From a virus: 31,790 nucleotides of DNA. The translations under genes were made by a program, and so were the position numbers. Positions 2,591-31,043 of the stretch are shown here, piece by piece. The notes beneath the pieces are model-generated. The model ran no database searches, was not told where the DNA came from, and worked only from the letters and a program-made list of their open reading frames with translations. Each line of letters starts with the position of its first letter. Position 1 is the stretch's first letter. The stretch lies in IMG/VR virus record IMGVR_UViG_3300017753_003568, positions 1-31,790 of that record; one strand, written 5' to 3'.

Positions 2591-5500
2591 ATGAAAAAAC
2601 TACAGTTATTATTATTAATAATTTTAATACCTTTTTTAGGTTATACACAAAATTCTTGGATTCATATCCAATTAATGACAGATAATTATCCTTCTGAAAC
2701 AAGTTGGGATATTACCCCTCCAGGTGGTTCACCTATTATTATAGAAAATGATAGCAATATGCTACCTAATACTTTATATGATACTATTGTTCAACTTGGT
2801 GGAACTATTATTGCAAGCATATATGATGAATATGGTGATGGTTTATCTTCCTCACAATTTGGTGGTACTGATGGTTGGTTTATGATTAGTAATTCATGTC
2901 AAGATACAATTATGTATGTTGCAGGTAATTTTGGAGATAGTTTAGTACAAACATTAACTATTGCTCCTTGTGCTCCTCCTCATGGAGGTTGTTTAGACCC
3001 AATAGCATTAAATTATGACTCTACAGCTACATTTTCAGATAGTTCTTGTATTTATCCTTTATGTAGTGGGTTAGATACTTTTTGGGTAGAAAATTTTTGT
3101 AATGTAGGTCAAAATAAAGTTTGGTACCATTGGAGTAATATGCCTAATCCTAATTGTAGAATGGCTTATTATACTAGAACAACAGATCCTAATACTCTAG
3201 GTAATACTTGGTATCCATACCCTATAAATTTTTCAAACACAGGTTTATTGTATAGTAACAGCCAACCAAATACTACTTATTACTTTTTAGGAATGTTAGC
3301 TGATTCAAGTTTAACAGATACTTTAGTAATAACAACAGGAGAATGTATTCCTGGTTGTATGGATCCAACAGCTTTGAATTATAATCCTTGGGCAAATACA
3401 GATGATGGTTCATGTCAAGCACCTCCTGCAAATTGTGTAAATGGAGAATCTAATATTGTAATAACAATTACACCAGATACTTATGCTGGAGAAACTTCTT
3501 GGGAAATTGCAGATACAACAGGTACAGTATTAGCAACATCACCTAATTATACTATAACAGGAGTACCTGTAATATCAGAAATATGTGTACCAAATGGTAC
3601 TGTAATAGAATTTACTTTATTTGATTCTTTTGGAGATGGTTTATGTGGTTCATGTTATGGTGGAGTAGATGGTACAGCATTAGTTCAAACTTTATGTGGT
3701 GATACTTTATTATCAATATTACCAGGTAATGCAAATTTTGGAAATGATACTTCTGTAATTTATACTGTAACTCCTTGTACACCTAATATTATTTTAGGAT
3801 GTACTACTCCAGGATTTACAGAATATAACCCACAAGCTAACACTGATGATGGTTCTTGTTTAACTCCTATAGTAATTGGTTGCATAGACTCAACTTCACC
3901 TGATTATGACCCATTAGCAAATACAATGGATATAATTCCTAGTTGTGATTATACTTTAGTAATTACAGATGAAGCAGAAGATGGATGGTTTGGTGCATGG
4001 GTTGGTATATTACAAGATACTACAATATTAGGTCCTTTTATGATGGGCCCTAATGATGGTTATTCAGAATCTTTTACAATTACTTTAAGTGCTTTAAATC
4101 CAGTTGAATTAATGTTTTTTGCTCCAGGCAATTCATCAACAACAGCAAATCAATGTGGATTCTTTTTAATAGGTCCTGAAGGTGATACTACATTATCTGG
4201 TGGTACTAATCCTTGGACAGATCCTATGTTACAATTTCCATATAGATATAATAATGTACCTTATTGTGGAGATTATTGTACACCTGGAGTTTTAGGTTGT
4301 ATGGATCCTACAGCATTAAATTATGATAGTCTAGCTAATATGCCTGATACTTGTACTCCAGTTATTTTAGGTTGTACAAACAGTTTAGCATTTAATTTTA
4401 ATCCAACTGCAAATGTAGATGATGGATCGTGTGAACCTATAATAATAGGATGTATGGATTCAACTGCATTTAATTATAATCCTTCAGCAAACACAAATGA
4501 TCCTTTGTCTTGTATACCTGTAATATTAGGATGTATGGATGATACACAATTTAATTATAACCCAGCAGCAAATACAGATGATGGTAGTTGTATTCCAATA
4601 ATATTTGGTTGCACTGACCCATTAGCTTATAATTTTGATTCATTAGCTAATACTAATAATGGTTCATGTATACCAGTTATTTTAGGTTGTACTGACCCAA
4701 CAGCTTTTAATTATAGTACTAATGCTAATACAGATGATGGTAGTTGTATTCCTGTAATAATTGGTTGTACTGACCCAACAGCATTAAATTATGATTCTTT
4801 AGCTAATACTAATAATGGGTGTATTTATCCAATTCTAGGTTGCACAGACCCTAATGCTTTTAATTTTAATGTAAATGCAAACACAGATGATGGTTCATGT
4901 GTACCTGAAGTTTTAGGATGTACTGATCCTACAGCTTTAAACTATGATTCATTAGCAAACATAAATATAGGTTGTATTTACCCAATTTTAGGTTGTACTG
5001 ACCCAACAGCATTTAATTATAATGTAAATGCAAATGTAGACGATGGTTCATGTGTACCCTATATTTATGGATGTACCGATTCTACAGCTTTTAATTTTAA
5101 CCCAACAGCAAATACAAATGTAGGATGCATTTACCCAATTTTAGGTTGTACAGATCCTACAATGTTTAATTTTGATCCATTAGCAAATACAGATGATGGT
5201 AGTTGTATTCCTTTTATCTATGGTTGTATGGATCCTATAATGTTTAATTATGACCCTAATGTTAATACTGATAATGGTTCGTGTATTCCTTTCATATATG
5301 GATGTACAGACTCAACGCAATATAATTTTGACCCAACAGCAAATACAGACAATGGATCTTGTATACCCTACATATATGGTTGTACCGATAATACAGCACT
5401 TAATTTTAATATACTAGCAAATACACTAGATAATTCTTGTTGTTATATAGGAGGTTGTACTGACCCAACAGCAGTAAATTATGACCCAGATGCTTGTTTT

Positions 5501-5992
5501 GATGATGGGTCATGTGTTACACCAATTTCAGGTTGTACTGACGTGTCTGCTTATAATTATGATCCTACAGCAAATGTTTCAGATACAACAGCTTGTTTAT
5601 ATGATGCTGGTTGTTATGGAGGACCTGGAATACCTTATTGGTTAAATGATGGATGTTATGCTTGGGTAATTGATGTTGATAATTATTGTTGTACTAATGA
5701 CTGGGATGTAAGTTGCCAATCAATGTATAATTATTGTGAATTAGGTTGGCCTACTTCACTTGAAAATTTATCTACATTAGGTATAAGAGTTTATCCTAAT
5801 CCTGCACAAGATATAGTAAATATTGATACTCGTTTAAATATTAAAGTAGAATTATATAATATAACAGGAGAATTAATATTAAAAGAAGAAAATTGTAAAA
5901 GAATTAATATGAGTGATTTTCCTTCTGGTATTTATCACGTGATAATAATTTATCAAGAAAAAAGATTTATAAATAAAATAATTAAACAATAA
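2591..5992 (+). CDS. Large Cys-repeat surface protein with T9SS sorting domain
   Basis: The 1133-residue protein has a signal peptide (residues 1-19, ending GYTQ|N) and two related DGDG-type domains (EYGDGL near 100, SFGDGL near 350). A third related region follows near 470 (EDGWFGAW). About 21 copies of a 25-residue motif GC-[TM]-DPTAxNY-x5-ANTDDGSC are present, 17 of them in tandem at residues 569-1002. A CCTNDWDVSCQ module lies near 1040. The last ~75 residues are a type IX secretion (TIGR04183-like) domain: RVYPNPAQD, VELYNITGE, PSGIYHV, KIIKQ. T9SS exists only in Bacteroidota, so the protein is built to be exported and anchored or released by the host. Adhesion, aggregation or superinfection blocking are possible roles (inference). 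Confidence 0.9.
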   Translation: MKKLQLLLLIILIPFLGYTQNSWIHIQLMTDNYPSETSWDITPPGGSPIIIENDSNMLPNTLYDTIVQLGGTIIASIYDEYGDGLSSSQFGGTDGWFMISNSCQDTIMYVAGNFGDSLVQTLTIAPCAPPHGGCLDPIALNYDSTATFSDSSCIYPLCSGLDTFWVENFCNVGQNKVWYHWSNMPNPNCRMAYYTRTTDPNTLGNTWYPYPINFSNTGLLYSNSQPNTTYYFLGMLADSSLTDTLVITTGECIPGCMDPTALNYNPWANTDDGSCQAPPANCVNGESNIVITITPDTYAGETSWEIADTTGTVLATSPNYTITGVPVISEICVPNGTVIEFTLFDSFGDGLCGSCYGGVDGTALVQTLCGDTLLSILPGNANFGNDTSVIYTVTPCTPNIILGCTTPGFTEYNPQANTDDGSCLTPIVIGCIDSTSPDYDPLANTMDIIPSCDYTLVITDEAEDGWFGAWVGILQDTTILGPFMMGPNDGYSESFTITLSALNPVELMFFAPGNSSTTANQCGFFLIGPEGDTTLSGGTNPWTDPMLQFPYRYNNVPYCGDYCTPGVLGCMDPTALNYDSLANMPDTCTPVILGCTNSLAFNFNPTANVDDGSCEPIIIGCMDSTAFNYNPSANTNDPLSCIPVILGCMDDTQFNYNPAANTDDGSCIPIIFGCTDPLAYNFDSLANTNNGSCIPVILGCTDPTAFNYSTNANTDDGSCIPVIIGCTDPTALNYDSLANTNNGCIYPILGCTDPNAFNFNVNANTDDGSCVPEVLGCTDPTALNYDSLANINIGCIYPILGCTDPTAFNYNVNANVDDGSCVPYIYGCTDSTAFNFNPTANTNVGCIYPILGCTDPTMFNFDPLANTDDGSCIPFIYGCMDPIMFNYDPNVNTDNGSCIPFIYGCTDSTQYNFDPTANTDNGSCIPYIYGCTDNTALNFNILANTLDNSCCYIGGCTDPTAVNYDPDACFDDGSCVTPISGCTDVSAYNYDPTANVSDTTACLYDAGCYGGPGIPYWLNDGCYAWVIDVDNYCCTNDWDVSCQSMYNYCELGWPTSLENLSTLGIRVYPNPAQDIVNIDTRLNIKVELYNITGELILKEENCKRINMSDFPSGIYHVIIIYQEKRFINKIIKQ
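4295..5596 (+). repeat. Tandem coding repeat, 17 copies of about 75-78 bp
   Basis: Each unit encodes GC-[TM]-DPTAxNY-x5-ANTDDGSC followed by IPxI or IYPI. The units are in frame inside the 2591-5992 gene. Copies differ at the DNA level, but stretches such as GGTTGTACTGACCCAACAGC recur almost unchanged, which would allow copy-number change by recombination. Each unit carries two cysteines, and acidic DDGSC turns suggest calcium binding (inference). Confidence 0.9.
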
Positions 5993-14662: not shown

Positions 14663-14854
14663 ATGAGACTACAATTAGAAATTTTAGCAAAATGGTTAAA
14701 AGACCATAAAGAAAGTTGGGATGAAAGAGATGGTGTCCTAGAATCAGCAATTAAACGTAGTAAAGAAGATACTATGTTTCAAATAGGTGATTTACTAGAT
14801 GAAATCCTACAAATGGATCCTGATCAAATTGATGACGAAAGACGAGACAAATGA
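14663..14854 (+). CDS. 63-residue acidic helical protein
   Basis: It reads MRLQLEILAKWLKDHKESWD and ends DPDQIDDERRDK. It is charged, helical and amphipathic, and no motif is recognised. It is the first gene behind a strong promoter and overlaps the UV endonuclease start in ATGA, so the two are probably translated together. Confidence 0.62.
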   Translation: MRLQLEILAKWLKDHKESWDERDGVLESAIKRSKEDTMFQIGDLLDEILQMDPDQIDDERRDK

Positions 14855-15747
14855 ATTTAGGATACGCTTGCATTAATACGGATTTAAAAAGTAAAGGTAT
14901 ATTTACAAATAGAACAATGCGTAGAAAAACGTTTGATTCTAAAGGTTTAGATTATGTTTCTGACTTATCACTTCAAAATGTAAAAGATCTTAAAACACAT
15001 ATTCTTTGGAATAATGAATTTAAAATTAAATTATTTAGATTATCATCTCAAATATTCCCTTGGATGGAGGAATACAATTGGGAGGATCTAAAAGATTGGG
15101 AGGAAATTAAATCATTAATGTTAGAATGTGGTAACATAGCTACTGAATCAGGACAAAGACTTACTATGCATCCTGGCCCTTATCATTGTTTAGCTTCTCC
15201 AAATCCTAAAGTTGTTAAAAGAACAGTTATTGGACTTGATAAACATGCTGAACAATTTGATATGATGGGATTTACACCCAGTCATTATAATAAAATTAAT
15301 ATTCATGTGGGTGGGGCTTATGGGGATAAAGAAGCAGCATTAGAAAGGTTTTGTAAGAATTTTGAATTATTGGGTGATAGTACTAAAAAAAGATTAGTAG
15401 TAGAAAATGATGATAGCCCAAACGAATATTCAGTGGCTGATTTATTTGATTTTGTTTACTTAAAAATCAAAACCCCAATTACATTTGATTATTTCCACCA
15501 CAAGTTTAATACTGGTGGTTTAACTGAAAAACAGGCATTAGAAACTGCTTCTATTACATGGCCTAAAGGTATAACTCAATGTTGTCACTATTCAGAAAGT
15601 CGTAGAAAAGAAAAATTAGATGAGTCAATTCGTCCTCAAGCTCATTCTGATTTAATTTATGAAAAAATACAAACATATGGTCTTGAACCAGATATTGTAA
15701 TTGAGGCAAAATTAAAAGAACAATCAATTTTTAAAAGAGTAATATAA
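14851..15747 (+). CDS. uvsE: UV-damage endonuclease (UvdE/UvsE)
   Basis: The 298 residues match the UVDE TIM-barrel family: MNLGYACINTDLKSKG at the start, LTMHPGPYHCLASPN (metal-binding His), NIHVGGAYGDKEAALERF, RLVVENDD (metal-binding Glu), TPITFDYFHHKFN (Asp-x-x-His-His) and QCCHYSESR. These enzymes nick DNA 5' of UV photoproducts and other lesions. Sunlit marine phages commonly carry such repair genes in place of T4 DenV. It is translationally coupled to both neighbours. Confidence 0.93.
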   Translation: MNLGYACINTDLKSKGIFTNRTMRRKTFDSKGLDYVSDLSLQNVKDLKTHILWNNEFKIKLFRLSSQIFPWMEEYNWEDLKDWEEIKSLMLECGNIATESGQRLTMHPGPYHCLASPNPKVVKRTVIGLDKHAEQFDMMGFTPSHYNKINIHVGGAYGDKEAALERFCKNFELLGDSTKKRLVVENDDSPNEYSVADLFDFVYLKIKTPITFDYFHHKFNTGGLTEKQALETASITWPKGITQCCHYSESRRKEKLDESIRPQAHSDLIYEKIQTYGLEPDIVIEAKLKEQSIFKRVI

Positions 15748-20589: not shown

Positions 20590-21288
20590 ATGGCAAAAAA
20601 CAAAAATACTAAAATTCACGAAAAATTAGAAGTTGTACAAAAAGGTTTTGCAAATGGAGTTGCAACTAATTTTCCTTTAAATGATAAACAAAAGGAACAA
20701 ATGATAGAAAGAGCTACTAAAGCATATGGAGAATTTTTAGATGCATTAGATTGTGATTGGAAAAATGATCCAAATTCAGCTGATACTCCAAGAAGAGTAG
20801 CTAAAGCATATGTAAATGATTTATGGGCGGGTAGATATACTCCAATGTCTCCTATTACATCATTTCCATCTGATGGTTATGATGGAATTATTATTGAAAG
20901 AAATATCCCATTAACATCAATGTGTTCTCATCACCATCAAACAATTAGTGGTGTAGTTCATATAGGTTATATAGCTGGAGAAGATGGTCAGGTAGTTGGA
21001 TTATCTAAATTAAATAGAATAGTTGAATTATTTGGACGAAGAGGAGCTATTCAAGAACAATTAACCTCAGCTATTCATAATGCTGTACATAAAATTACTG
21101 AAGGTAATAGAGGTGTTATAGTAACTATAGTTGCAGGACATAATTGTGTTTCTTGTAGAGGAGTAAAACATCAAGGAGCAGGTATGGTAACTACTAAAGC
21201 ATCAGGTGTATTTAGACAAAATACTAACTTAGCTAGAAAAGAATTTTTTGATAGCTTAAAAATTAATAACGGAGGACATCAAATATAA
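20590..21288 (+). CDS. folE: GTP cyclohydrolase I (FolE)
   Basis: The 232 residues contain all hallmarks: DTPRRVAKAYVNDLWAG, MCSHHHQTISGVVHIGYIA (zinc Cys and active-site His), VVGLSKLNRIVELFGRR, EQLTSAIHNAV and GHNCVSCRGVKHQGAGMVTT (second zinc Cys). FolE opens GTP to dihydroneopterin triphosphate, the first step toward preQ0 as well as folate. With queD, queE and queC on the same strand, the deazaguanine route is complete. The length matches the family. It is the first gene behind its own promoter. Confidence 0.96.
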   Translation: MAKNKNTKIHEKLEVVQKGFANGVATNFPLNDKQKEQMIERATKAYGEFLDALDCDWKNDPNSADTPRRVAKAYVNDLWAGRYTPMSPITSFPSDGYDGIIIERNIPLTSMCSHHHQTISGVVHIGYIAGEDGQVVGLSKLNRIVELFGRRGAIQEQLTSAIHNAVHKITEGNRGVIVTIVAGHNCVSCRGVKHQGAGMVTTKASGVFRQNTNLARKEFFDSLKINNGGHQI

Positions 21289-21293
21289 AAACA

Positions 21294-21806
21294 ATGGATA
21301 ATAAAAAAGAAAAATTAGGTAATAAATATTGGAATGTACCTTTTGTAAATGAGGTAGAAACATTTAATGAAACATTTGGTAAACCAAATAATTATGAACC
21401 AACAATTGGTAAAAAGAAGGAATGGAAATTTGTATATGATTTTATTCTTGAGGAATTAGAAGAATATAAAGAAGCATGTGAAAAAGGAGATATAATAGGT
21501 ATATTAGATGCATTATGTGATATTACTTATGTTTCATTAGGTAATGGAACAATGTTACATGGTTTGAAAGGTCATATTTGGAAAGCATATCAAGAAGTTC
21601 AAGCATCTAATATGTCTAAGTCTTGTGCAACTAAAGAAGAAGCTGAGGAAACAGTTAAAGTAAGATCTGAAGAAAAAGGTCATCCTTGCCATTGGGAAAA
21701 AATTGGTAATCGTTATGTGGTGTATCGTTCAAGTGATAGAAAAGTAATGAAATCTATAAATTATTTTGCTCCAGATTTAAATCAATTTTTTGATAAAGAA
21801 GATTAA
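21294..21806 (+). CDS. MazG-like nucleotide pyrophosphohydrolase
   Basis: In the 170 residues, FILEELEEYKEACEKGDIIG followed by ILDALCDITYVSLG forms the EExxE...DxxxD metal-binding pattern of the all-alpha NTP pyrophosphatases (MazG, dUTPase-2, HisE). The extra C-terminal part (WEKIGNRYVVYRSSDRK) is common in phage versions. The role is to hydrolyse (d)NTPs or alarmones and clean nucleotide pools. Being 5 bases after folE, it may remove unwanted GTP/dGTP derivatives or adjust pools for modified DNA (inference). Confidence 0.8.
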   Translation: MDNKKEKLGNKYWNVPFVNEVETFNETFGKPNNYEPTIGKKKEWKFVYDFILEELEEYKEACEKGDIIGILDALCDITYVSLGNGTMLHGLKGHIWKAYQEVQASNMSKSCATKEEAEETVKVRSEEKGHPCHWEKIGNRYVVYRSSDRKVMKSINYFAPDLNQFFDKED

Positions 21807-22546: not shown

Positions 22547-24226
22547 ATGTACAAAAAAGCATTTGCAAGACGTATTAAAGGAAATAAACATTTAATACAT
22601 TTATGGACTGATGAAGGTTATGAGAAGGTAGAATGGGATAATCAAGCTTATATTGAATGTCCTGATCATGAAGCAACTTTTACTGGATTAAATGGTGAGC
22701 CTTTAAAGAAAACTAAACACTGGAATAATGAAGATAGTAGAATTCATTTTGGTGATATGCCTGCTCATCAAAAATTCTTAATTGAAAAATATGGCATTGA
22801 TGATACTCCATCTACAACCCACAGAGAATTATTTTTTGATATTGAGTGTGAAATGGGGGATGCTTTAACTCCTGAATATATTCAAAGTGCTCCCAAAAGA
22901 ATTACTTCAATTGCCTGGTATGATAAACAAATGGATCAGTGGGGTATTGTTATTTTAGATGAAAAAAAGCAATTAAAACACACTAAAACTAAAAATAATA
23001 AAGAAATTATTCCTTGTGGGGATGAAACTGAATTATTAAGTAAATTTTTAGAGCGATTTAGAGACATTGATCCTGATATTATTGTAGGATGGAATAGTGA
23101 TTATTTTGATATCCCTTACTTATATTACAGATTATGTAATGTTTTGGGTCAAGATTTTGCTAGGTTTTTATCTCCAATAGGTTATGTAAGAGAAACACCT
23201 TGGTACAAAGATCAATATATTCAAATATGTGGGGTTGAATCTTTAGATTATATGCGTTTACATAAAAAATATAGTTGGGCAGATGAACCCTCAATGAGAT
23301 TAGATGCAATTGGAGAGAAATATGTTGGTATGAATAAAATTGAATATGAAGGTAATTTAGATGACTTATTTAATACTGATATTCAAAAATTCATTAGGTA
23401 TAATTTTGTGGATGTTGAAATATTAAAATTACTAGATGAAAAATTGGATTATTTAGCTTTAACTAAAAATCTAGCTCATAAGGGAAAACATAATTATAGT
23501 GAAGTATATGCTAATACTAAAACCCAAGATGGAGCAATCTCAGCTTATTTATTAAGTAAGAAAATAATACCACCTGCTAAAGATCGTAATCCTATCCATA
23601 AAAAGGGATATGCTGGTGGTTATTTATTCTGCCCCCAAGCTGGTTTATACAATTATATGTTTGATGAGGATTTAACATCACTATATCCTTCAATTATTAT
23701 GACTGTTAATATTGGTAAGGAAACAATGGTAGCTAGAATTATTGATGCTGATGATAGAAATAACAGATTAGGATTAAATGATTTAAAAGCTAAGGATCCT
23801 AAAGAAGAAATATTAATTGAAAATATTAAACGTAAACGTACTAAAGTTACTATAGGAGATTTAATTGGATTTATTGAATCTAATAAGTGGGCTATTTCAG
23901 CAAATGGTGTTATGTTTAGTACAAATCGTGAGTCAGTATTATCAACTATATTAAATAAATGGTTTGATGAAAGAGTATTGTATAAGAATGAAATGAAAAA
24001 AGCATATAAATTAGGTAATAAAGAACTAGGTGCTGCTTATCATATGAAACAATATACTATGAAAATTTTATTAAATAGTTTATATGGTGCTACTGCATTA
24101 GGTTCGTTCAGATATGGTAATGTAGTGTTATCTGAAGCCATTACATTAAGTGGTCAGCGTATTATCCAAGAAAGTGCTTTATGCGCTAATAGACATATGA
24201 ATAAAGTAATTAAAGGTAAGATATGA
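22547..24226 (+). CDS. DNA polymerase family B, N-terminal part (gp43 A: exonuclease, motifs A and B)
   Basis: The 559 residues hold the exonuclease sites LFFDIECEMG (Exo I), IVGWNSDYFDIPYL (Exo II) and YNFVDVEIL (Exo III). Polymerase motif A (FDEDLTSLYPSIIM) and motif B (MKILLNSLYGATALGSFRYG) follow. It ends at KVIKGKI with TGA, just before where motif C should come. The next gene, starting in ATGA overlap, carries motif C and the thumb. Together they make ~868 residues, close to T4 gp43 (898). Split gp43 polymerases (43A/43B) are known in some T4-like Aeromonas phages. The two chains presumably assemble into one enzyme. Confidence 0.95.
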   Translation: MYKKAFARRIKGNKHLIHLWTDEGYEKVEWDNQAYIECPDHEATFTGLNGEPLKKTKHWNNEDSRIHFGDMPAHQKFLIEKYGIDDTPSTTHRELFFDIECEMGDALTPEYIQSAPKRITSIAWYDKQMDQWGIVILDEKKQLKHTKTKNNKEIIPCGDETELLSKFLERFRDIDPDIIVGWNSDYFDIPYLYYRLCNVLGQDFARFLSPIGYVRETPWYKDQYIQICGVESLDYMRLHKKYSWADEPSMRLDAIGEKYVGMNKIEYEGNLDDLFNTDIQKFIRYNFVDVEILKLLDEKLDYLALTKNLAHKGKHNYSEVYANTKTQDGAISAYLLSKKIIPPAKDRNPIHKKGYAGGYLFCPQAGLYNYMFDEDLTSLYPSIIMTVNIGKETMVARIIDADDRNNRLGLNDLKAKDPKEEILIENIKRKRTKVTIGDLIGFIESNKWAISANGVMFSTNRESVLSTILNKWFDERVLYKNEMKKAYKLGNKELGAAYHMKQYTMKILLNSLYGATALGSFRYGNVVLSEAITLSGQRIIQESALCANRHMNKVIKGKI

Positions 24227-25152
24227 AACATTTAGAAGATACTCCGTGGTGGATTTGTGATCCAGGTGACACAAATTACTGTGCTTATGTTGATACAGAT
24301 TCTAATTATTTTAATGCAGAACCTTTACTAAGACATTTATATCCTAATTTTGATGAAATGTCAGATTCAGAACGAGATAGTGTTTTAGAAAAAGAAGCAC
24401 TCAAATATCAAGATATTATAACTGAAGATTATGATAGATTAGCTCAAGATTGTTTTAATGTTTCTACTCATAGATTAGAAATGAAAACTGAGTGTGTAAT
24501 CAGATCAGCTTATTTTAGAGCTACAAGACGTTATGCACAGTGGATTACTAAGCAGGAAGGCATTGAAAATGAAACATTAGATGTAAAAGGGTTAGAATTT
24601 AAGAAAGCTAATTTTCCTCCTGTATTTGGTAAGTTTTTTAAAAGTTGTTTAGAACAAGTACTTAAAGGAGTACCTAAACATGAAATTGATTCTCAATTAT
24701 TAGAATTTAGAAGACAGATACTAAGTGGAGAAATACCTTTAGAAAAAATTGGTAATCCCCAAGCAGTAAAAAAATTAAATAAGTTTACTGAACGTAAAGC
24801 TAGAGCTGGGGAAATGTTTTCTTCAATAGGTAAAGGTGCTCCTGCAGCTGTTAAAGCAGCTATAATTTATAATGATTTACTAAGATTTTGGAAATTAGAT
24901 AAAAAATATAATTACATTACACAAGGAGAAAAAATTAAATGGATTTATTTAAAAAATAATCCCTATAGAATTGAAGCAATTGCTTTTCTAGACTATGATA
25001 TACCAAAAGAAATTCGTACATTCATTGAGAAATATGCTGATAGACAAAAAGTATTTGAAAGTATTTTATTAAATAAATTAGAGGGATTTTATAATGATTT
25101 AGGTTGGTCATTAAATTTAAACCCTCATAGAAATAAATTTTTTAATTTTTAA
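24223..25152 (+). CDS. DNA polymerase family B, C-terminal part (gp43 B: motif C and thumb)
   Basis: The 309 residues begin MKHLEDTPWWICDPGDTNYC and contain motif C, AYVDTDSNYF, with the catalytic Asp pair. They continue through RSAYFRATRRYAQWITKQEG (the KKRYA-like region), LDVKGLEFKKANFPPVFGKF and the thumb, ending SLNLNPHRNKFFNF. It is one frame back from the N-terminal part and starts in a 4-base ATGA overlap, which suits translational coupling. The C-terminal tail, like T4 gp43's, may bind the sliding clamp (inference). Confidence 0.93.
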   Translation: MKHLEDTPWWICDPGDTNYCAYVDTDSNYFNAEPLLRHLYPNFDEMSDSERDSVLEKEALKYQDIITEDYDRLAQDCFNVSTHRLEMKTECVIRSAYFRATRRYAQWITKQEGIENETLDVKGLEFKKANFPPVFGKFFKSCLEQVLKGVPKHEIDSQLLEFRRQILSGEIPLEKIGNPQAVKKLNKFTERKARAGEMFSSIGKGAPAAVKAAIIYNDLLRFWKLDKKYNYITQGEKIKWIYLKNNPYRIEAIAFLDYDIPKEIRTFIEKYADRQKVFESILLNKLEGFYNDLGWSLNLNPHRNKFFNF

Positions 25153-25153
25153 T

Positions 25154-25531
25154 ATGGCTAAAGATAAACCTGATATGTTTGCTGATAAAAAAGCTATTAT
25201 GCCCTATGGGGATAGTGTAGCAGCTCCTAAAATAGATTTACCAAATACTAATGCTTGGGTAACTCAACAATCAATAGATGTTAATAACTATTTGTCTACT
25301 AAATTTATAGAATTAAAGGAAGAATATGCAAAGCTTATATCTTTATACAAATGGAATGAATTAGTTAATAAATCTGAATTTAGTTTTATTCCTATTAAAG
25401 GACATACCTACTATCTTTATCAAAGAGAAGATGAAAAATTATTTTTATCTTTAATTGAACCTGAATATTGGGATCAATTATTTGTAGGAGAAGTGATTTT
25501 AGACTCAGATAATAAATGGATTAAAAAATAA
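25154..25531 (+). CDS. DUF2452-like protein
   Basis: In the 125 residues, the C-terminal half SEFSFIPIKGHTYYLYQRED then LSLIEPEYWDQL follows the pattern F-x-P-x-x-G-x-x-YYLY...LSLI-x-P-x-W, which I associate with DUF2452, a family of unknown function in bacteria and phages. The N-terminus is polar (MAKDKPDMFADKKAIM). It is one base after the polymerase and 5 bases before the clamp gene, so a replication-linked role is possible. Confidence 0.6.
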   Translation: MAKDKPDMFADKKAIMPYGDSVAAPKIDLPNTNAWVTQQSIDVNNYLSTKFIELKEEYAKLISLYKWNELVNKSEFSFIPIKGHTYYLYQREDEKLFLSLIEPEYWDQLFVGEVILDSDNKWIKK

Positions 25532-26359: not shown

Positions 26360-26782
26360 ATGAGTACACATTTTTTAGAGAGATCACACCATCCGTTTGA
26401 TCTATTATTTCGAAACCTGTTTGAAACAGGAACCCAATTTACACCGGCTACTGAAGCCAAACAACAATACCCAATTAATATTTTTGAAGATGATATAGGT
26501 TTAACTTTTGAGTTAGCTTGTACTGGCATTCCTAAGGATGCTATTGAAGTTAAATTAGAAGGAGATCTAATCAGTTTTAATTATGATAAGGAGAAAACAC
26601 CAGAATCTTCTTCTCGAAACTATATCCATAGAGGAATTGCAAAACGTTCTTTTAATTTAGGATATAAAGTAGGAACTAAGTTTGACCTTAAAAAAGCAAC
26701 AGCTAATTTTCATGATGGTTTACTAATTGTGACAATTCCATTTGCAAAAGAAGCTATGCCAAAAGTTTTAAAAATTAACTAA
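26360..26782 (+). CDS. Small heat-shock protein (Hsp20/alpha-crystallin)
   Basis: The 140 residues contain an alpha-crystallin domain at ~45-130: YPINIFEDDIGLTFELACTG, IPKDAIEVKLEGDLISFNYD, YIHRGIAKRSFNLGYKV and the signature FHDGLLIVTIPFAK. A C-terminal I/V-x-I-like anchor (VLKIN) follows. sHSPs hold unfolding proteins for refolding by ATP-driven chaperones. Phage Hsp20s are frequent in marine T4-like phages. Here it is close to groES/groEL, forming a folding set. A 12-base GC-rich inverted repeat flanks the gene. Confidence 0.92.
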   Translation: MSTHFLERSHHPFDLLFRNLFETGTQFTPATEAKQQYPINIFEDDIGLTFELACTGIPKDAIEVKLEGDLISFNYDKEKTPESSSRNYIHRGIAKRSFNLGYKVGTKFDLKKATANFHDGLLIVTIPFAKEAMPKVLKIN

Positions 26783-26788
26783 CCAAAA

Positions 26789-26801
26789 GCGCCCTTTAGG
26801 T
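26789..26801. repeat. Right arm of the inverted repeat flanking hsp20
   Basis: GCGCCCTTTAGGT mirrors 26291-26302. It lies just after the hsp20 stop, within a weak hairpin AACCAA (26781-26786)/TTGGTT (26801-26806), and abuts the next promoter. Confidence 0.6.
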
Positions 26802-26831
26802 TGGTTTATTAAAACTATTTTCGTATATTAC
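26800..26831 (+). promoter_or_regulatory. Promoter for the chaperonin unit
   Basis: GTTG (26800-26803) and TATATTAC (26824-26831) are spaced by 20 bases, and the spacer ends ATTTTCG. It drives 26857, groES and groEL. Confidence 0.72.
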
Positions 26832-26856
26832 ATCATAATTAAAAAATTAAAGTTAT

Positions 26857-27153
26857 ATGACTATTATTAGAGACCCATTATTAGAGCCTTATTTTATAGG
26901 CAAAGATGCATATTGCTATACAGCGTATGAAGTGATAACACCACAAAAAAAATATTTAGCTGAAGGTAGCAAAGGCAAAAATTATGAAAAACCAATAGGC
27001 CATTATGCTGATTTTGGTAATGCTCTAGAAGCAATTATGAAAGCTCAATTAAACGAAAAAAATGGAGAATATTCATCCATCCAAGAATATTTGGATAAAT
27101 GGAATAAAATAAAATCAAATTTAAATAACATTAAAGAAAAAATTGGAATATGA
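26857..27153 (+). CDS. Conserved small phage protein (DPLLEPYFIG)
   Basis: The 98 residues begin MTIIRDPLLEPYFIGKDAYC, then AYEVITPQKKYLAEGSKGKN, GHYADFGNALEAIMKAQLN and SIQEYLDKWNKI. I recall this layout from other marine T4-like phages, always without an assigned function. It is the first gene of the chaperonin transcript and overlaps groES by ATGA. Translation coupling suggests a related need, but nothing indicates chaperone activity. Confidence 0.72.
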   Translation: MTIIRDPLLEPYFIGKDAYCYTAYEVITPQKKYLAEGSKGKNYEKPIGHYADFGNALEAIMKAQLNEKNGEYSSIQEYLDKWNKIKSNLNNIKEKIGI

Positions 27154-27488
27154 ATTTAGAAGCATTATTTAACGCTGTTATAGTTAAACCAATTGAAGCA
27201 GAAGAAACAAAGTATGGTTCAATTGTAGTCCCTGATATGGGAAAAGATGTAAATGAACATGGAGAAATAATAGCAGTAGGACCTGGTCAACACACAATTT
27301 CAGGTACATTTATTGAAACTATGAGTAAAGTTGGAGATATAGTAATATTACCAACTCAAGGATTTACAAAGTTACAACATGATGGGGAAGATTATTATGT
27401 TGGTCCTGAAAATCAAATCTTAGCTAGAGTAAAAAAAGAAGTTGATTATGAAAAAATATTAGAAGAAACTGAACCTTTAAAAGAATAA
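27150..27488 (+). CDS. groES: Co-chaperonin GroES
   Basis: The 112 residues fit Cpn10: LFNAVIVKPIEAEETKYGSI, VVPDMGKDVNEHGEIIAVGP (the mobile-loop region is shortened and altered), KVGDIVILPTQGFTKLQHDG and EDYYVGPENQILARV. An extra ~15-residue acidic tail follows. It caps the GroEL ring. T4 itself encodes only a GroES analogue (gp31) that uses host GroEL; here the phage has both partners side by side (2 bases apart), so they may function as a dedicated pair for phage proteins. Confidence 0.9.
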   Translation: MNLEALFNAVIVKPIEAEETKYGSIVVPDMGKDVNEHGEIIAVGPGQHTISGTFIETMSKVGDIVILPTQGFTKLQHDGEDYYVGPENQILARVKKEVDYEKILEETEPLKE

Positions 27489-27490
27489 AA

Positions 27491-29134
27491 ATGAGTAAAA
27501 TTATAGAATTTGGCCCTGAGGGGAGAAATAAATTAGTAAAAGGAATTGATACATTAGCTAATGCTGTAGTATCTACATTAGGACCCAATGGGAGAAATGT
27601 AGTAATTGAAAGACCTAACCAGTCACCTATATCTACAAAAGATGGAGTTACAGTAGCAAAACATATAAATGTAAGTAATCCTGTAGAAAATTTAGGTGTT
27701 AACTTAGTTAGAGAAGCATCTATAAAAACAGCAGATAAAGCTGGTGACGGTACAACTACATCTACTTTATTAGCTAGAGAAATGATCAAAGATGGTTTAC
27801 AACATTTAGCTAATGGAGCTAATGCTGTTGAAATTAAAAGAGGAATTGATAAAGCAGTAAAAGAAGTTGTCAATAATTTAAGAGAAAATCTATCAGAAGA
27901 TATTTCAGATGAAAATCAATTAGAACAAATTGCAACTATTTCTGCTAATAATGATCCTGAAGTAGGTAAGTTAATAGCTACGGCTATGGATAAAGTAGGA
28001 GTTGAAGGGGTAGTACATATTGAAGAATCTAAAACAGGTGATACCTATTTGGAAACTGTTGAAGGAATGCAATTTGATAGAGGTTATTTATCACATTATT
28101 TTGTCACTAATAATAGTACAATGACTTGTACTTTAGAAGATCCTTACATTTTGGTACTTAATCAAAAATTATCTCAAGTTAAAGACTTATTACCTATGTT
28201 AGAAGCAGTTTCTAACACTAATAAATCATTACTTATTATAGCTGAGGATGTTGATAGTGAAGCATTAGCAACCCTTATTGTAAACAAAGCTAGAGGTACA
28301 ATTAAAGTAGCTGCTGTTAAAGCACCTGACTTTGGTGATAGAAGAAAATTAATCTTAGAAGACATAGCATCAGTAACAGGAGGTCAAGTATTTGATAAAG
28401 ATAAAGGAATGAAACTTGATAAATTTTCTTGGGAATGGTTTGGTGAAGCTCGTACTGTAACTATCTCAAAGGAAAAAACAACTATTATTGATGGTAAAGG
28501 AGATGAAGAATCTGTTAAACAACGTCTAGAAGAACTTACTACCCAAATTGATAAAGCACAATCTTCATTTGAAACTGAAAAGTTACAAGAAAGATTAGCT
28601 AAAATGGCTGGTGGTGTTTCTATTATTCATGTTGGAGGTTATACTGAAACTGAAATGAATGAAAAGAAAGATAGAGTTGATGATGCTTTACATGCAACCA
28701 AAGCTGCTATTGAAGAAGGTATTGTACCTGGAGGAGGAGCAGCTCTATTATATGCAAGAGAAGCAATACCAGTTTCAAGTAAATGTAATAATTGTATAGG
28801 GGCTGATATAGTTTATAATTCATGTGGTAAACCTTTTGAACAAATTTTAGTTAATGCTGGTAAAGATTCAGTTGAAGCCCAAATGATAGGAAAATACAAT
28901 TTAGTAGATTCAGGTAATGATACATGGGCGGGATATAATATTAAAACTGGAGTAGTTACTGATATGAAAAAAGCAGGTATTATTGATCCTACTAAAGTAA
29001 CTAGAACAGCACTTGAAAATGCTGCCTCAGTAGCAGGAACTGTATTACTTACAGAATGTATAGTTGTTGATGAACCTAAAGAAGAAAATAACCAACCACA
29101 ATTAGATCCATCAATGATGGGGATGGGCATGTAA
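27491..29134 (+). CDS. groEL: Chaperonin GroEL
   Basis: The 547 residues are full length. The ATP-binding elements are TLGPNGRNVVIE, STKDGVTVAKHI, KAGDGTTTSTLLARE and the equatorial VPGGGAALLYA. The intermediate/apical part has ATISANNDPEVG, GVVHIEESKT, GMQFDRGYLSHYFVTN, VKAPDFGDRRKLILEDIA and AKMAGGVSIIHVGG. The tail ends SMMGMGM, the GGM-type repeat. An unusual cysteine-rich stretch (SSKCNNCIGADIVYNSCGKP) lies at about residues 428-447. It assembles as a ring that folds proteins with GroES. A complete phage-encoded GroEL-GroES pair is uncommon. Confidence 0.96.
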   Translation: MSKIIEFGPEGRNKLVKGIDTLANAVVSTLGPNGRNVVIERPNQSPISTKDGVTVAKHINVSNPVENLGVNLVREASIKTADKAGDGTTTSTLLAREMIKDGLQHLANGANAVEIKRGIDKAVKEVVNNLRENLSEDISDENQLEQIATISANNDPEVGKLIATAMDKVGVEGVVHIEESKTGDTYLETVEGMQFDRGYLSHYFVTNNSTMTCTLEDPYILVLNQKLSQVKDLLPMLEAVSNTNKSLLIIAEDVDSEALATLIVNKARGTIKVAAVKAPDFGDRRKLILEDIASVTGGQVFDKDKGMKLDKFSWEWFGEARTVTISKEKTTIIDGKGDEESVKQRLEELTTQIDKAQSSFETEKLQERLAKMAGGVSIIHVGGYTETEMNEKKDRVDDALHATKAAIEEGIVPGGGAALLYAREAIPVSSKCNNCIGADIVYNSCGKPFEQILVNAGKDSVEAQMIGKYNLVDSGNDTWAGYNIKTGVVTDMKKAGIIDPTKVTRTALENAASVAGTVLLTECIVVDEPKEENNQPQLDPSMMGMGM

Positions 29135-29444: not shown

Positions 29445-30368
29445 ATGAAAAAACATAGTTTACTAGTTGAAAAATATAGACCTACTAATATAGATAATTA
29501 TGTAGGTAATGAAAGTATTAAAAATACTATTAAAAGTTATATTGACCAAAATGATATTCAAAATTTATTATTTTATGGTCCTGCAGGAACTGGGAAAACT
29601 ACATTAGCTAAATTAATTGCTAAAAATATTGATTGTGATCTATTATATATTAATGCTTCAGATGAAAGAGGTATTGAAACTATTAGAGATAAAGTATCAG
29701 GATTTGCTAGTACAATGTCTTTCAAAGCATTAAAAATTGTTATTTTAGATGAAGCAGATTTTTTAACTATGATGGCTCAAGCATCTTTAAGAAATGTTAT
29801 TGAAACCTTTTCACGTTCAACTAGATTTATATTGACTTGTAATTATCTAGAAAGAATTATTGACCCTTTACAATCAAGATGTCAAACATTAAAAATAATA
29901 CCTCCAGATAAATTAGAAATTGTTAACCATTTAATGAAAGTTGTAAATAAAGAAAAAATTAAATGTAGTGTAAATGATTTAGAAACTATTACAAATAACA
30001 ATTACCCTGATGTACGTAAAATGCTTAATACTATACAGGTATCTACCGCAAATAACACATTAAAATTAGATACAGACACACTAATAGGAAGTAATTATCA
30101 AGATCAAATATTAGAAGAATTAAAAACAAAAAAACCAAATTGGAGAACAATTAGACAAATAATAGCAGATTCTAATGTTAAAGATTTTGAAGGATTTTAT
30201 CGTTTTCTTTACGATAATAGTAGTAAATATGCTCCTGGAAAGGAAGGTATGATAGCATATTATGTAAATGAATACTCATACCAATCAAATTTCAGAATAG
30301 ATAAAGAAGTAAATTGTATGGCTTTAATATCTAAAATTATAGAAACAATTAAACCAAATATTATTTAA
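29445..30368 (+). CDS. Clamp loader ATPase (T4 gp44-like)
   Basis: The 307-residue AAA+ protein has LLVEKYRPTNIDNYVGNE, Walker A GPAGTGKTT, Walker B VILDEADF, FILTCNYLERIIDPLQSRC (sensor 1 and the SRC arginine finger) and NNYPDVRKMLNTIQ (sensor 2). It opens the sliding clamp with gp62. Length and the following gp62-like gene match T4 gp44 (319 residues). The N-terminus is conserved from LLVEKYRP, so the ATG at 29445, very near the promoter, is right. Confidence 0.94.
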   Translation: MKKHSLLVEKYRPTNIDNYVGNESIKNTIKSYIDQNDIQNLLFYGPAGTGKTTLAKLIAKNIDCDLLYINASDERGIETIRDKVSGFASTMSFKALKIVILDEADFLTMMAQASLRNVIETFSRSTRFILTCNYLERIIDPLQSRCQTLKIIPPDKLEIVNHLMKVVNKEKIKCSVNDLETITNNNYPDVRKMLNTIQVSTANNTLKLDTDTLIGSNYQDQILEELKTKKPNWRTIRQIIADSNVKDFEGFYRFLYDNSSKYAPGKEGMIAYYVNEYSYQSNFRIDKEVNCMALISKIIETIKPNII

Positions 30369-30379
30369 AATTATTAATT

Positions 30380-30628
30380 ATGCAAAATGGAATGCAACAA
30401 CCAAACATTGATTTAAAAAACACAACCGCTATTGAAACAGAAGATGGAGGAAGAATATGGCAACAAGGAGCTTTATTACGTAAAGTATCTAAATTTGTAA
30501 CAGGAACTGACTCTGATGCTGTTATGCCTATCCCTGTTTTTTATGATCCTGAAACAAATAAAATTTTAGAAGATTCACTTCCAAAAGAATTAAGAGAGGA
30601 ATATAAGGATGTCCTTGTTAAATCCTAA
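30380..30628 (+). CDS. 82-residue conserved unknown protein
   Basis: It starts MQNGMQQPNIDLKNTTAIET, contains EDGGRIWQQGALLRKVSKFV and PIPVFYDPETNKILEDSLPK, and ends YKDVLVKS. It lies between the two clamp-loader genes and overlaps the gp62-like start by 20 bases. No fold or family is recognised, but position suggests a replication role. Confidence 0.65.
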   Translation: MQNGMQQPNIDLKNTTAIETEDGGRIWQQGALLRKVSKFVTGTDSDAVMPIPVFYDPETNKILEDSLPKELREEYKDVLVKS

Positions 30629-31043
30629 AAATATTTTTGAATGGCTAAATGAACTTACTGATAAAAAGTCAAGTTTAGATAGTTTTGAAGAAAGTGCTTG
30701 GGGAACTTTTAATGCCTATATGGTACATAGATTTGTATCAATGTATCAAGGTTATATTGAAATCGCTAACCTAGCACAAAAATTTTCTCCAACAGATAAA
30801 AAAGGAATATACAATTTTTATTGTGAAATGCTTCCTAGAAAAAAAATGTTTTTGAGATATATTAAGTCAAAAACAAAACAAAATACAAAAGAAATATTAG
30901 AACCTATTGTTAAATATTTTGAATGTAGTTTTGTAGAAGCAAATGAGTATATAAATCTTTTAAATAGGGAGGAAATTAAAGATATTCTTATTAAATTAGG
31001 AATAAATAGTAAAGAAATTAAAAAATTAATTAAAAAATTATAA
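30609..31043 (+). CDS. Clamp loader small subunit (T4 gp62-like)
   Basis: The 144 residues are all-helical. NPKNIFEWLNELTDKKSSLD, YMVHRFVSMYQGYIEIANLA and GIYNFYCEMLPRKKMFLRYI resemble gp62's conserved WLN, MVNRFLS-type, NxY and PxRK positions. T4 gp62 is 187 residues and binds gp44 in a 4:1 complex. The position just after gp44 is the same as in T4. Similarity is modest in sequence but convincing with context. Confidence 0.8.
   Translation: MSLLNPKNIFEWLNELTDKKSSLDSFEESAWGTFNAYMVHRFVSMYQGYIEIANLAQKFSPTDKKGIYNFYCEMLPRKKMFLRYIKSKTKQNTKEILEPIVKYFECSFVEANEYINLLNREEIKDILIKLGINSKEIKKLIKKL

What the first reader, a model, noticed from the sequence alone, without database searches (positions are those of the whole stretch)
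24200..24310. DNA polymerase split between motifs B and C with ATGA coupling
The first chain ends after the motif B helix region and the second starts ~42 residues before YVDTDS. No intron or homing endonuclease lies between them; only a 4-base overlap. Split gp43 is known in a few T4-like phages, but a seamless overlap rather than an inserted element is notable.
Basis: partly seen in the sequence, partly recalled or inferred. Interest (0 to 1): 0.6.

Follow-up and report, generated by a model that had tools for sequence, protein, structure and literature searches.

The report
Two-piece replicative DNA polymerase, marine phages
This virus, and every one of about 200 uncultured relatives examined, builds its T4-type DNA polymerase from two separately translated proteins that divide the active site between them, and in many relatives unrelated genes have moved into the gap, so the break is a long-fixed feature and not a sequencing slip.

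Summary
The split is real. Chain A (22547-24226, 559 aa) carries the exonuclease and polymerase motifs A and B. Chain B (24223-25152, 309 aa) carries motif C, thumb and tail. They overlap by ATGA. One correction: B starts 21 residues before YVDTDS, not 42.

Among 198 non-redundant IMG/VR and MAG relatives none is fused. 67 have the ATGA overlap, 9 TAATG, 4 short gaps, and 118 carry 0.2-2.7 kb of other genes between A and B (nucleotide-sugar and amino-acid enzymes, small unknown genes, five endonuclease genes). Chain B's N-terminus (MKHLEDTPWWICD) is almost invariant and starts exactly 21 residues before motif C in 106 of 106 loci measured. Both chains are under strong purifying selection. Frameshift, intein, intron and sequencing-error readings were tested and fail. 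In seven contigs of 111-164 kb the pair is the only DNA polymerase above family cut-offs.

Best explanation: an obligate two-chain T4-type PolB, co-translated by termination-reinitiation where the genes touch. Reconstitution is inferred, with precedent in Aeromonas phage 25. Known splits lie elsewhere (44RR: between motifs A and B) or use inteins (MIJ3, L121: at motif C). New variant of a known kind, with an unusual gene-acquisition site inside a replicative polymerase.

The parts
22547..24226 (+). Chain A of split PolB (559 aa): N-terminal region, 3'-5' exonuclease, polymerase motifs A and B
   Evidence: phrog_262 residues 11-556 E 2.7e-116; Pfam DNA_pol_B and DNA_pol_B_exo1; AlphaFold model matches RB69 gp43, E 4e-30
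24223..25152 (+). Chain B of split PolB (309 aa): motif C (YVDTDS), RRYAQW block, thumb, C-terminal FFNF tail
   Evidence: phrog_262 profile positions 565-844 E 2.6e-48, directly continuing chain A's 16-567; model matches RB69 gp43 E 8e-8
24223..24226 (+). ATGA stop/start overlap (A stop TGA, B start ATG)
   Evidence: sequence; literal ATGA in 63 of 63 loci with a -4 junction in the earlier census
24223..24261 (+). Conserved new N-terminus of chain B, MKHLEDTPWWICD
   Evidence: near-invariant in 106 loci, always exactly 21 residues before the motif C tyrosine
22838..22846 (+). Exo I motif (D98-I-E100); Exo II is WNSDYFD and Exo III YNFVD further on in chain A
   Evidence: invariant columns D98 I99 E100, N183 S184 D185 F187 D188, Y285 N286 F287 D289
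23669..23689 (+). Polymerase motif A, DLTSLYP (residues 375-381)
   Evidence: invariant in 47 relatives
24062..24088 (+). Polymerase motif B, KILLNSLYG (residues 506-514)
   Evidence: invariant in 47 relatives; aligned to RB69 KLLINSLYGA
24286..24303 (+). Polymerase motif C, YVDTDS (residues 22-27 of chain B)
   Evidence: Y22 D24 T25 D26 S27 invariant in 57 relatives; aligned to RB69 YGDTDS
25154..25531 (+). DUF2452 gene downstream of B; in some relatives its homologue sits between A and B
   Evidence: Pfam PF10504 E 1.8e-8; L020, L169 and L185 junction genes match it at 45-51%
29445..30368 (+). Clamp loader large subunit (T4 gp44 type), replisome neighbour
   Evidence: phrog_168 E 2.3e-78
30609..31043 (+). 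Clamp loader small subunit (T4 gp62 type), replisome neighbour
   Evidence: phrog_225 E 9.7e-17

Best explanation
The two ORFs are the two subunits of one T4-type family B replicative DNA polymerase. Shown: chain A holds the exonuclease, the palm strand with motif A and the fingers with motif B; chain B holds the palm hairpin with motif C and the thumb, so each chain alone lacks part of the catalytic centre. Shown: the break sits in the linker between the helix after motif B and the motif C hairpin (RB69 residues about 607-613), removes no conserved residue, and comes with about 16 extra residues. Shown: the break is fixed in every relative examined, both chains are under strong purifying selection, and no other polymerase passes family cut-offs in long contigs. 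Inferred: the chains fold together into an active heterodimer; where they overlap by ATGA, B is translated by ribosomes that finish A and restart, giving about equal amounts; and the invariant N-terminus of B serves as the docking segment against A. Also inferred: one ancestral break, later used repeatedly as an insertion site for other genes, including homing-type endonucleases.
For: The PHROG profile continues from A (16-567) into B (565-844). Exo and pol motifs are invariant. Both models match RB69 gp43; two of the lowest-confidence parts of A (302-320, 350-375) lie upstream of motif A, which I read as a palm missing the part carried by B. 198 of 198 non-redundant relatives are split at the same place. 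The split maps as a single change against unsplit outgroups, while contact versus insert state changes at least 9 times. B's start is fixed 21 residues before motif C in 106 of 106. dN 0.004-0.036 against dS 0.18-0.55 for both chains in near relatives. A and B distances track each other, Spearman 0.88. The pair is the only polymerase above cut-off in seven contigs of 111-164 kb. Precedent: 43A and 43B of Aeromonas phage 25 co-purify and are active (PMC2988022).
Against: No experiment shows that A and B associate or are active in this clade. The contigs may be fragments, so a further polymerase elsewhere cannot be fully excluded; one contig (G005) has a sub-threshold PolA-like match. Chain B's first 10 residues are predicted with low confidence when B is modelled alone, so the docking role is a guess. 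Outgroup branches in the tree are long, so the single origin of the split is only as good as that tree.
Confidence: 0.87

Rival explanations
1. Sequencing or assembly frameshift in an intact gene.
For: An ATGA overlap is what a 1-base indel can leave behind; one relative (L049) does have an apparent stop inside B.
Against: 198 non-redundant loci share the break, 118 of them with 60 nt or more, mostly whole genes, between A and B. B's start is conserved to the residue.
Confidence: 0.01
2. A -1 programmed frameshift (or other recoding) joins A and B into one chain.
For: B is in the -1 frame of A at the overlap.
Against: The B frame is closed by a stop 3-27 nt upstream of its ATG in all 55 ATGA loci tested, and no slippery heptamer is present in that space. 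It cannot apply to loci with genes in between.
Confidence: 0.02
3. The break was created by a mobile element (homing endonuclease, or a split intein at motif C) that was later lost, leaving a scar. This is a rival about origin, not about present function.
For: Five relatives carry homing-type endonucleases in the junction (GIY-YIG in L168 and L227; HNH/DUF723-like in L251, L351 and L415). A divergent PolB (L121) is split at motif C by a split intein with a separate ORF between the halves. Jumbo phage MIJ3 has a split PolB with intein and HNH gene (PMC6892783). Split archaeal PolB is ascribed to erratic intein excision (PMC4104785).
Against: L168 sits closest to ATGA loci and L227 beside L056/L057, none of which has the element, so these look like later arrivals. 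No intein remnant is found in A's tail or B's head. The current break is about 26 residues upstream of the L121 intein site.
Confidence: 0.4
4. The pair is a degenerate or accessory enzyme and another polymerase replicates the genome.
For: The contigs may be incomplete; a weak PolA-like match exists in one.
Against: All catalytic residues are invariant; selection is strong; no second PolB, PolA or PolIII alpha passes the family cut-off in seven contigs of 111-164 kb; clamp-loader genes lie nearby in the window.
Confidence: 0.04

Closest known systems
Split gp43 (43A/43B) of Aeromonas phages 44RR2.8t and 25
   Same: T4-type PolB encoded as two adjacent genes; the phage 25 chains co-purify and are active (PMC2988022).
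   Different: The 44RR break is in the fingers, before motif B: its 43B still contains NSLYGALG and YIDTDS. An untranslated spacer (44RR) or a seg endonuclease (25) is associated with the split; here the break is between motifs B and C, often with a 4-nt overlap, and fixed in a large clade.
Split PolB with split intein in jumbo phage MIJ3 (and locus L121 here)
   Same: PolB broken close to motif C (in L121 right at it), with a gene between the halves (PMC6892783).
   Different: There the halves carry intein pieces and are expected to be trans-spliced into one chain; here no intein is present and two chains must remain.
Split PolB3 of Methanobacteriales
   Same: A lineage-wide split family B polymerase, thought to follow erratic intein excision (PMC4104785).
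   Different: Archaeal cellular enzyme; the break position was not compared here.
Unsplit PolB of Microcystis phage Mel-JY01
   Same: Closest annotated relative in the phage collection, 34-35% identical to A and B.
   Different: Single 848-aa chain with 55 residues from the start of motif B to motif C, against 71 summed over A and B here.

Membership tests
T4-type family B DNA polymerase (gp43) | Exo I-III and polymerase motifs A, B, C all present | tested here: met
   Invariant in 47 (A) and 57 (B) relatives
T4-type family B DNA polymerase (gp43) | Profile and fold match to gp43 over the whole length | tested here: met
   phrog_262 16-567 plus 565-844; Foldseek to RB69 gp43 for both chains
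T4-type family B DNA polymerase (gp43) | Polymerase activity of the assembled chains | not testable with these tools
   needs expression and assay
Aeromonas 43A/43B split type | Break between motifs A and B, in the fingers | tested here: not met
   44RR 43A ends and 43B begins before motif B; here the break is 45 residues after motif B
Fractured gene with split intein | Intein N-part on A and C-part on B | tested here: not met
   A ends 4 residues after the helix, B begins 21 residues before motif C, no room for intein parts; contrast L121
Gene interrupted by group I intron | Intron between exons, splicing to one ORF | tested here: not met
   4-nt overlap in the window; no Rfam intron in the window or seven further loci
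Split gene with a homing endonuclease at the break | Endonuclease gene at the break | tested here: not met
   none in the window; five of the 118 relatives with 60 nt or more in the junction have one
-1 programmed frameshift | Slippery heptamer and open B frame upstream of the overlap | tested here: not met
   no heptamer, B frame closed within 27 nt in 55 loci

The most novel reading that the evidence does not exclude
The clade has made the two-chain state permanent. The replicative polymerase is an obligate heterodimer with a dedicated docking segment (MKHLEDTPWWICD) on chain B, and the gap between its two halves has become a stable gene-acquisition locus, so that sugar and amino-acid metabolism genes are co-expressed from inside the polymerase gene.
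Probability: 0.4. Interest if true: 0.7.

Novelty: new variant of a known kind. Interest (0 to 1): 0.55.

Why it matters
Replicative polymerases are usually seen as too tightly constrained to be cut through the catalytic palm. Here a large phage group lives with that cut, and repeatedly gains and loses other genes inside it. This gives a natural design for a split polymerase that needs no intein, a test case for how split essential genes become fixed, and a practical warning: annotation that expects one PolB ORF, or repairs apparent frameshifts, will mis-score these genomes.

Tried and rejected
Sequencing error, programmed frameshift, intron and split intein were each tested and rejected. I first suspected that the endonuclease in L168 marked the origin of the break; the relatives most like L168 have the bare ATGA junction, so it is better read as a later insertion. 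The common 88-aa junction gene (130 matches between A and B over all fetched loci, duplicates included) was considered as a possible polymerase partner; in several ATGA genomes its homologue lies several kb upstream of A, so it is not tied to the junction, and Pfam and PHROGs give no convincing family. Searching for a relative among annotated phage records gave none above 36% identity. The break position of the Methanobacteriales PolB could not be compared. A joint AlphaFold model of A plus B was not run, since the tool folds single chains and takes no altered copies. L049 shows an apparent stop inside motif C of B; a single record, not pursued. dN/dS for L007 and L064 chain A is unusable (most likely an indel in my ungapped comparison) and was discarded. 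The first script for the pattern-search loci returned nothing because of a wrong option and was rerun.

Full report
WHAT IS THERE. The window is a virus record of 31,790 bases. Two forward ORFs, 22547..24226 (559 aa) and 24223..25152 (309 aa), overlap by ATGA at 24223-24226. Together they cover one T4-type family B DNA polymerase: PHROG 262 matches A at profile positions 16-567 and B at 565-844. A has Exo I (DIE), Exo II (NSDYFD), Exo III (YNFVD), motif A (DLTSLYPS) and motif B (KILLNSLYG); B has motif C (YVDTDS), the RRYAQW block, the thumb and a terminal FFNF. The key motif residues, apart from the terminal FFNF, are invariant or nearly so among 47 (A) and 57 (B) relatives.

WHERE THE BREAK LIES. 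Chain A ends just past the long helix after motif B (predicted 526-555). In sequence alignments A residue 554 falls on RB69 residue 608 and B residue 10 on RB69 residue 607. The break is therefore in the linker between that helix and the motif C hairpin, and no catalytic residue is lost. From the start of motif B (NSLYG) to motif C there are 55 residues in the unsplit PolB of Microcystis phage Mel-JY01 and 71 summed over A and B here, i.e. 16 extra. AlphaFold models of A and B made separately match RB69 gp43. Confidence is lowest in A at 239-249, 302-320 and 350-375; the last two lie upstream of motif A, which I read as a palm missing the part held by B.

IT IS NOT AN ERROR. 80 IMG/VR relatives of A (66-100% identical) were fetched first; every one with enough sequence shows the same break. 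Further scans raised the set to 198 loci that differ in the start of B. None is fused; 67 have the 4-nt overlap, 9 TAATG, 4 gaps under 60 nt, and 118 have 60 nt or more (up to 2,687) between A and B. Close genomes differ in state: L004, 94-95% identical to the window in both chains, has a 342-nt insert with a cupin-like remnant. On a tree rooted with unsplit relatives the split is one change, while contact versus insert state needs at least nine (outgroup branches are long).

WHAT SITS IN THE JUNCTION OF RELATIVES. Junction genes fill most of the space and are mostly not mobile elements: an 88-aa protein of unknown family (most common), DUF6165, a mannose-6-phosphate isomerase-type cupin, an Smr-domain protein, DUF2452 (which follows B in the window), a PALP/cysteine-synthase-type enzyme, a cytidylyltransferase, an FkbM methyltransferase and a DegT aminotransferase. 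Five loci carry homing-type endonucleases: GIY-YIG/SegE-like in L168 and L227 (76% nucleotide identity over 882 columns covering the end of A and the element), HNH/DUF723-like in L251, L351 and L415. L168's nearest relatives have the bare ATGA junction and L227's have other genes, so these look like later invaders.

HOW IT WORKS. Alternatives that would give one chain fail. There is no slippery heptamer, and the B frame is closed by a stop 3-27 nt upstream of its ATG in all 55 ATGA loci tested. There is no intron in Rfam, and no intein sequence in A's tail or B's head. B's first residues (MKHLEDTPWWICD) are nearly invariant and start exactly 21 residues before motif C in 106 of 106 loci, whereas A's tail varies in length and sequence. 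Both chains evolve under strong purifying selection (dN 0.004-0.036, dS 0.18-0.55 against L002-L005) and their distances correlate (Spearman 0.88). In seven contigs of 111-164 kb no other PolB, PolA or PolIII alpha passes the family cut-off (a sub-threshold PolA-like match in one). I conclude that A and B form an obligate heterodimeric replicative polymerase. Heterodimer formation, translational coupling at ATGA and docking by B's N-terminus are inferred, with precedent in phage 25, whose split chains co-purify and are active (PMC2988022).

COMPARISON. The split gp43 of Aeromonas phage 44RR was read directly: 43B begins upstream of motif B, so its break is between motifs A and B. A divergent phage PolB found here (L121) is interrupted at GDTDS by intein halves with a separate ORF between them, similar to what is described for jumbo phage MIJ3 (PMC6892783). 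Lineage-wide split archaeal PolB (Methanobacteriales) is thought to follow erratic intein excision (PMC4104785). The present case matches none of these in position and mechanism together. A marine/Bacteroidota setting is suggested by MAG names (three of five genome hits are Flavobacteriales or Flavobacteriaceae) and a T9SS sorting domain in a window protein; it is not proven. The paper searches were limited to open-licence papers, so an earlier description of this clade cannot be ruled out.

VERDICT. Real, lineage-wide and well supported; a new variant of a known kind. The surprising parts are the position in the catalytic palm, the fixed new N-terminus and the repeated occupation of the junction by metabolic genes.

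Noticed in passing
window 2591-5992: 1133-aa protein ends in a Por_Secre_tail (type IX secretion C-terminal sorting) domain, E 1.2e-11: a phage protein with a Bacteroidota secretion signal, which also hints at the host.
   Followed up: partly
window 26360-29134: Chaperone cluster: Hsp20 (26360-26782), GroES-like (27150-27488) and a cpn60/GroEL-type chaperonin (27491-29134) between the polymerase and clamp-loader genes.
   Followed up: no
L121 4001-8081: Divergent phage PolB split at motif C: GDTDS followed by an intein N-part, a separate ORF between the halves, and an intein C-part on the second chain.
   Followed up: partly
L083 2-6852 (LR756508): Huge-phage PolB that appears to carry inteins at both motif B and motif C and is also broken between them, with other ORFs in the gap.
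   Followed up: partly
L049 4884-5816: Apparent stop plus two-codon insertion inside motif C (YSDT*ADS) of chain B; single record, error or decay not distinguished.
   Followed up: no
L019 3020-3286 and relatives: 88-aa protein family with no convincing Pfam or PHROG match, the commonest gene between A and B; in some ATGA genomes it lies several kb upstream of A.
   Followed up: partly
L154 against window, L007, L064: Chain B about 13 points more similar than chain A (e.g. 93% against 80%), suggesting recombination near the A/B junction.
   Followed up: no
window 14851-15747 and 20590-21806: UvdE UV endonuclease, GTP cyclohydrolase I and a MazG-like pyrophosphohydrolase.
   Followed up: no
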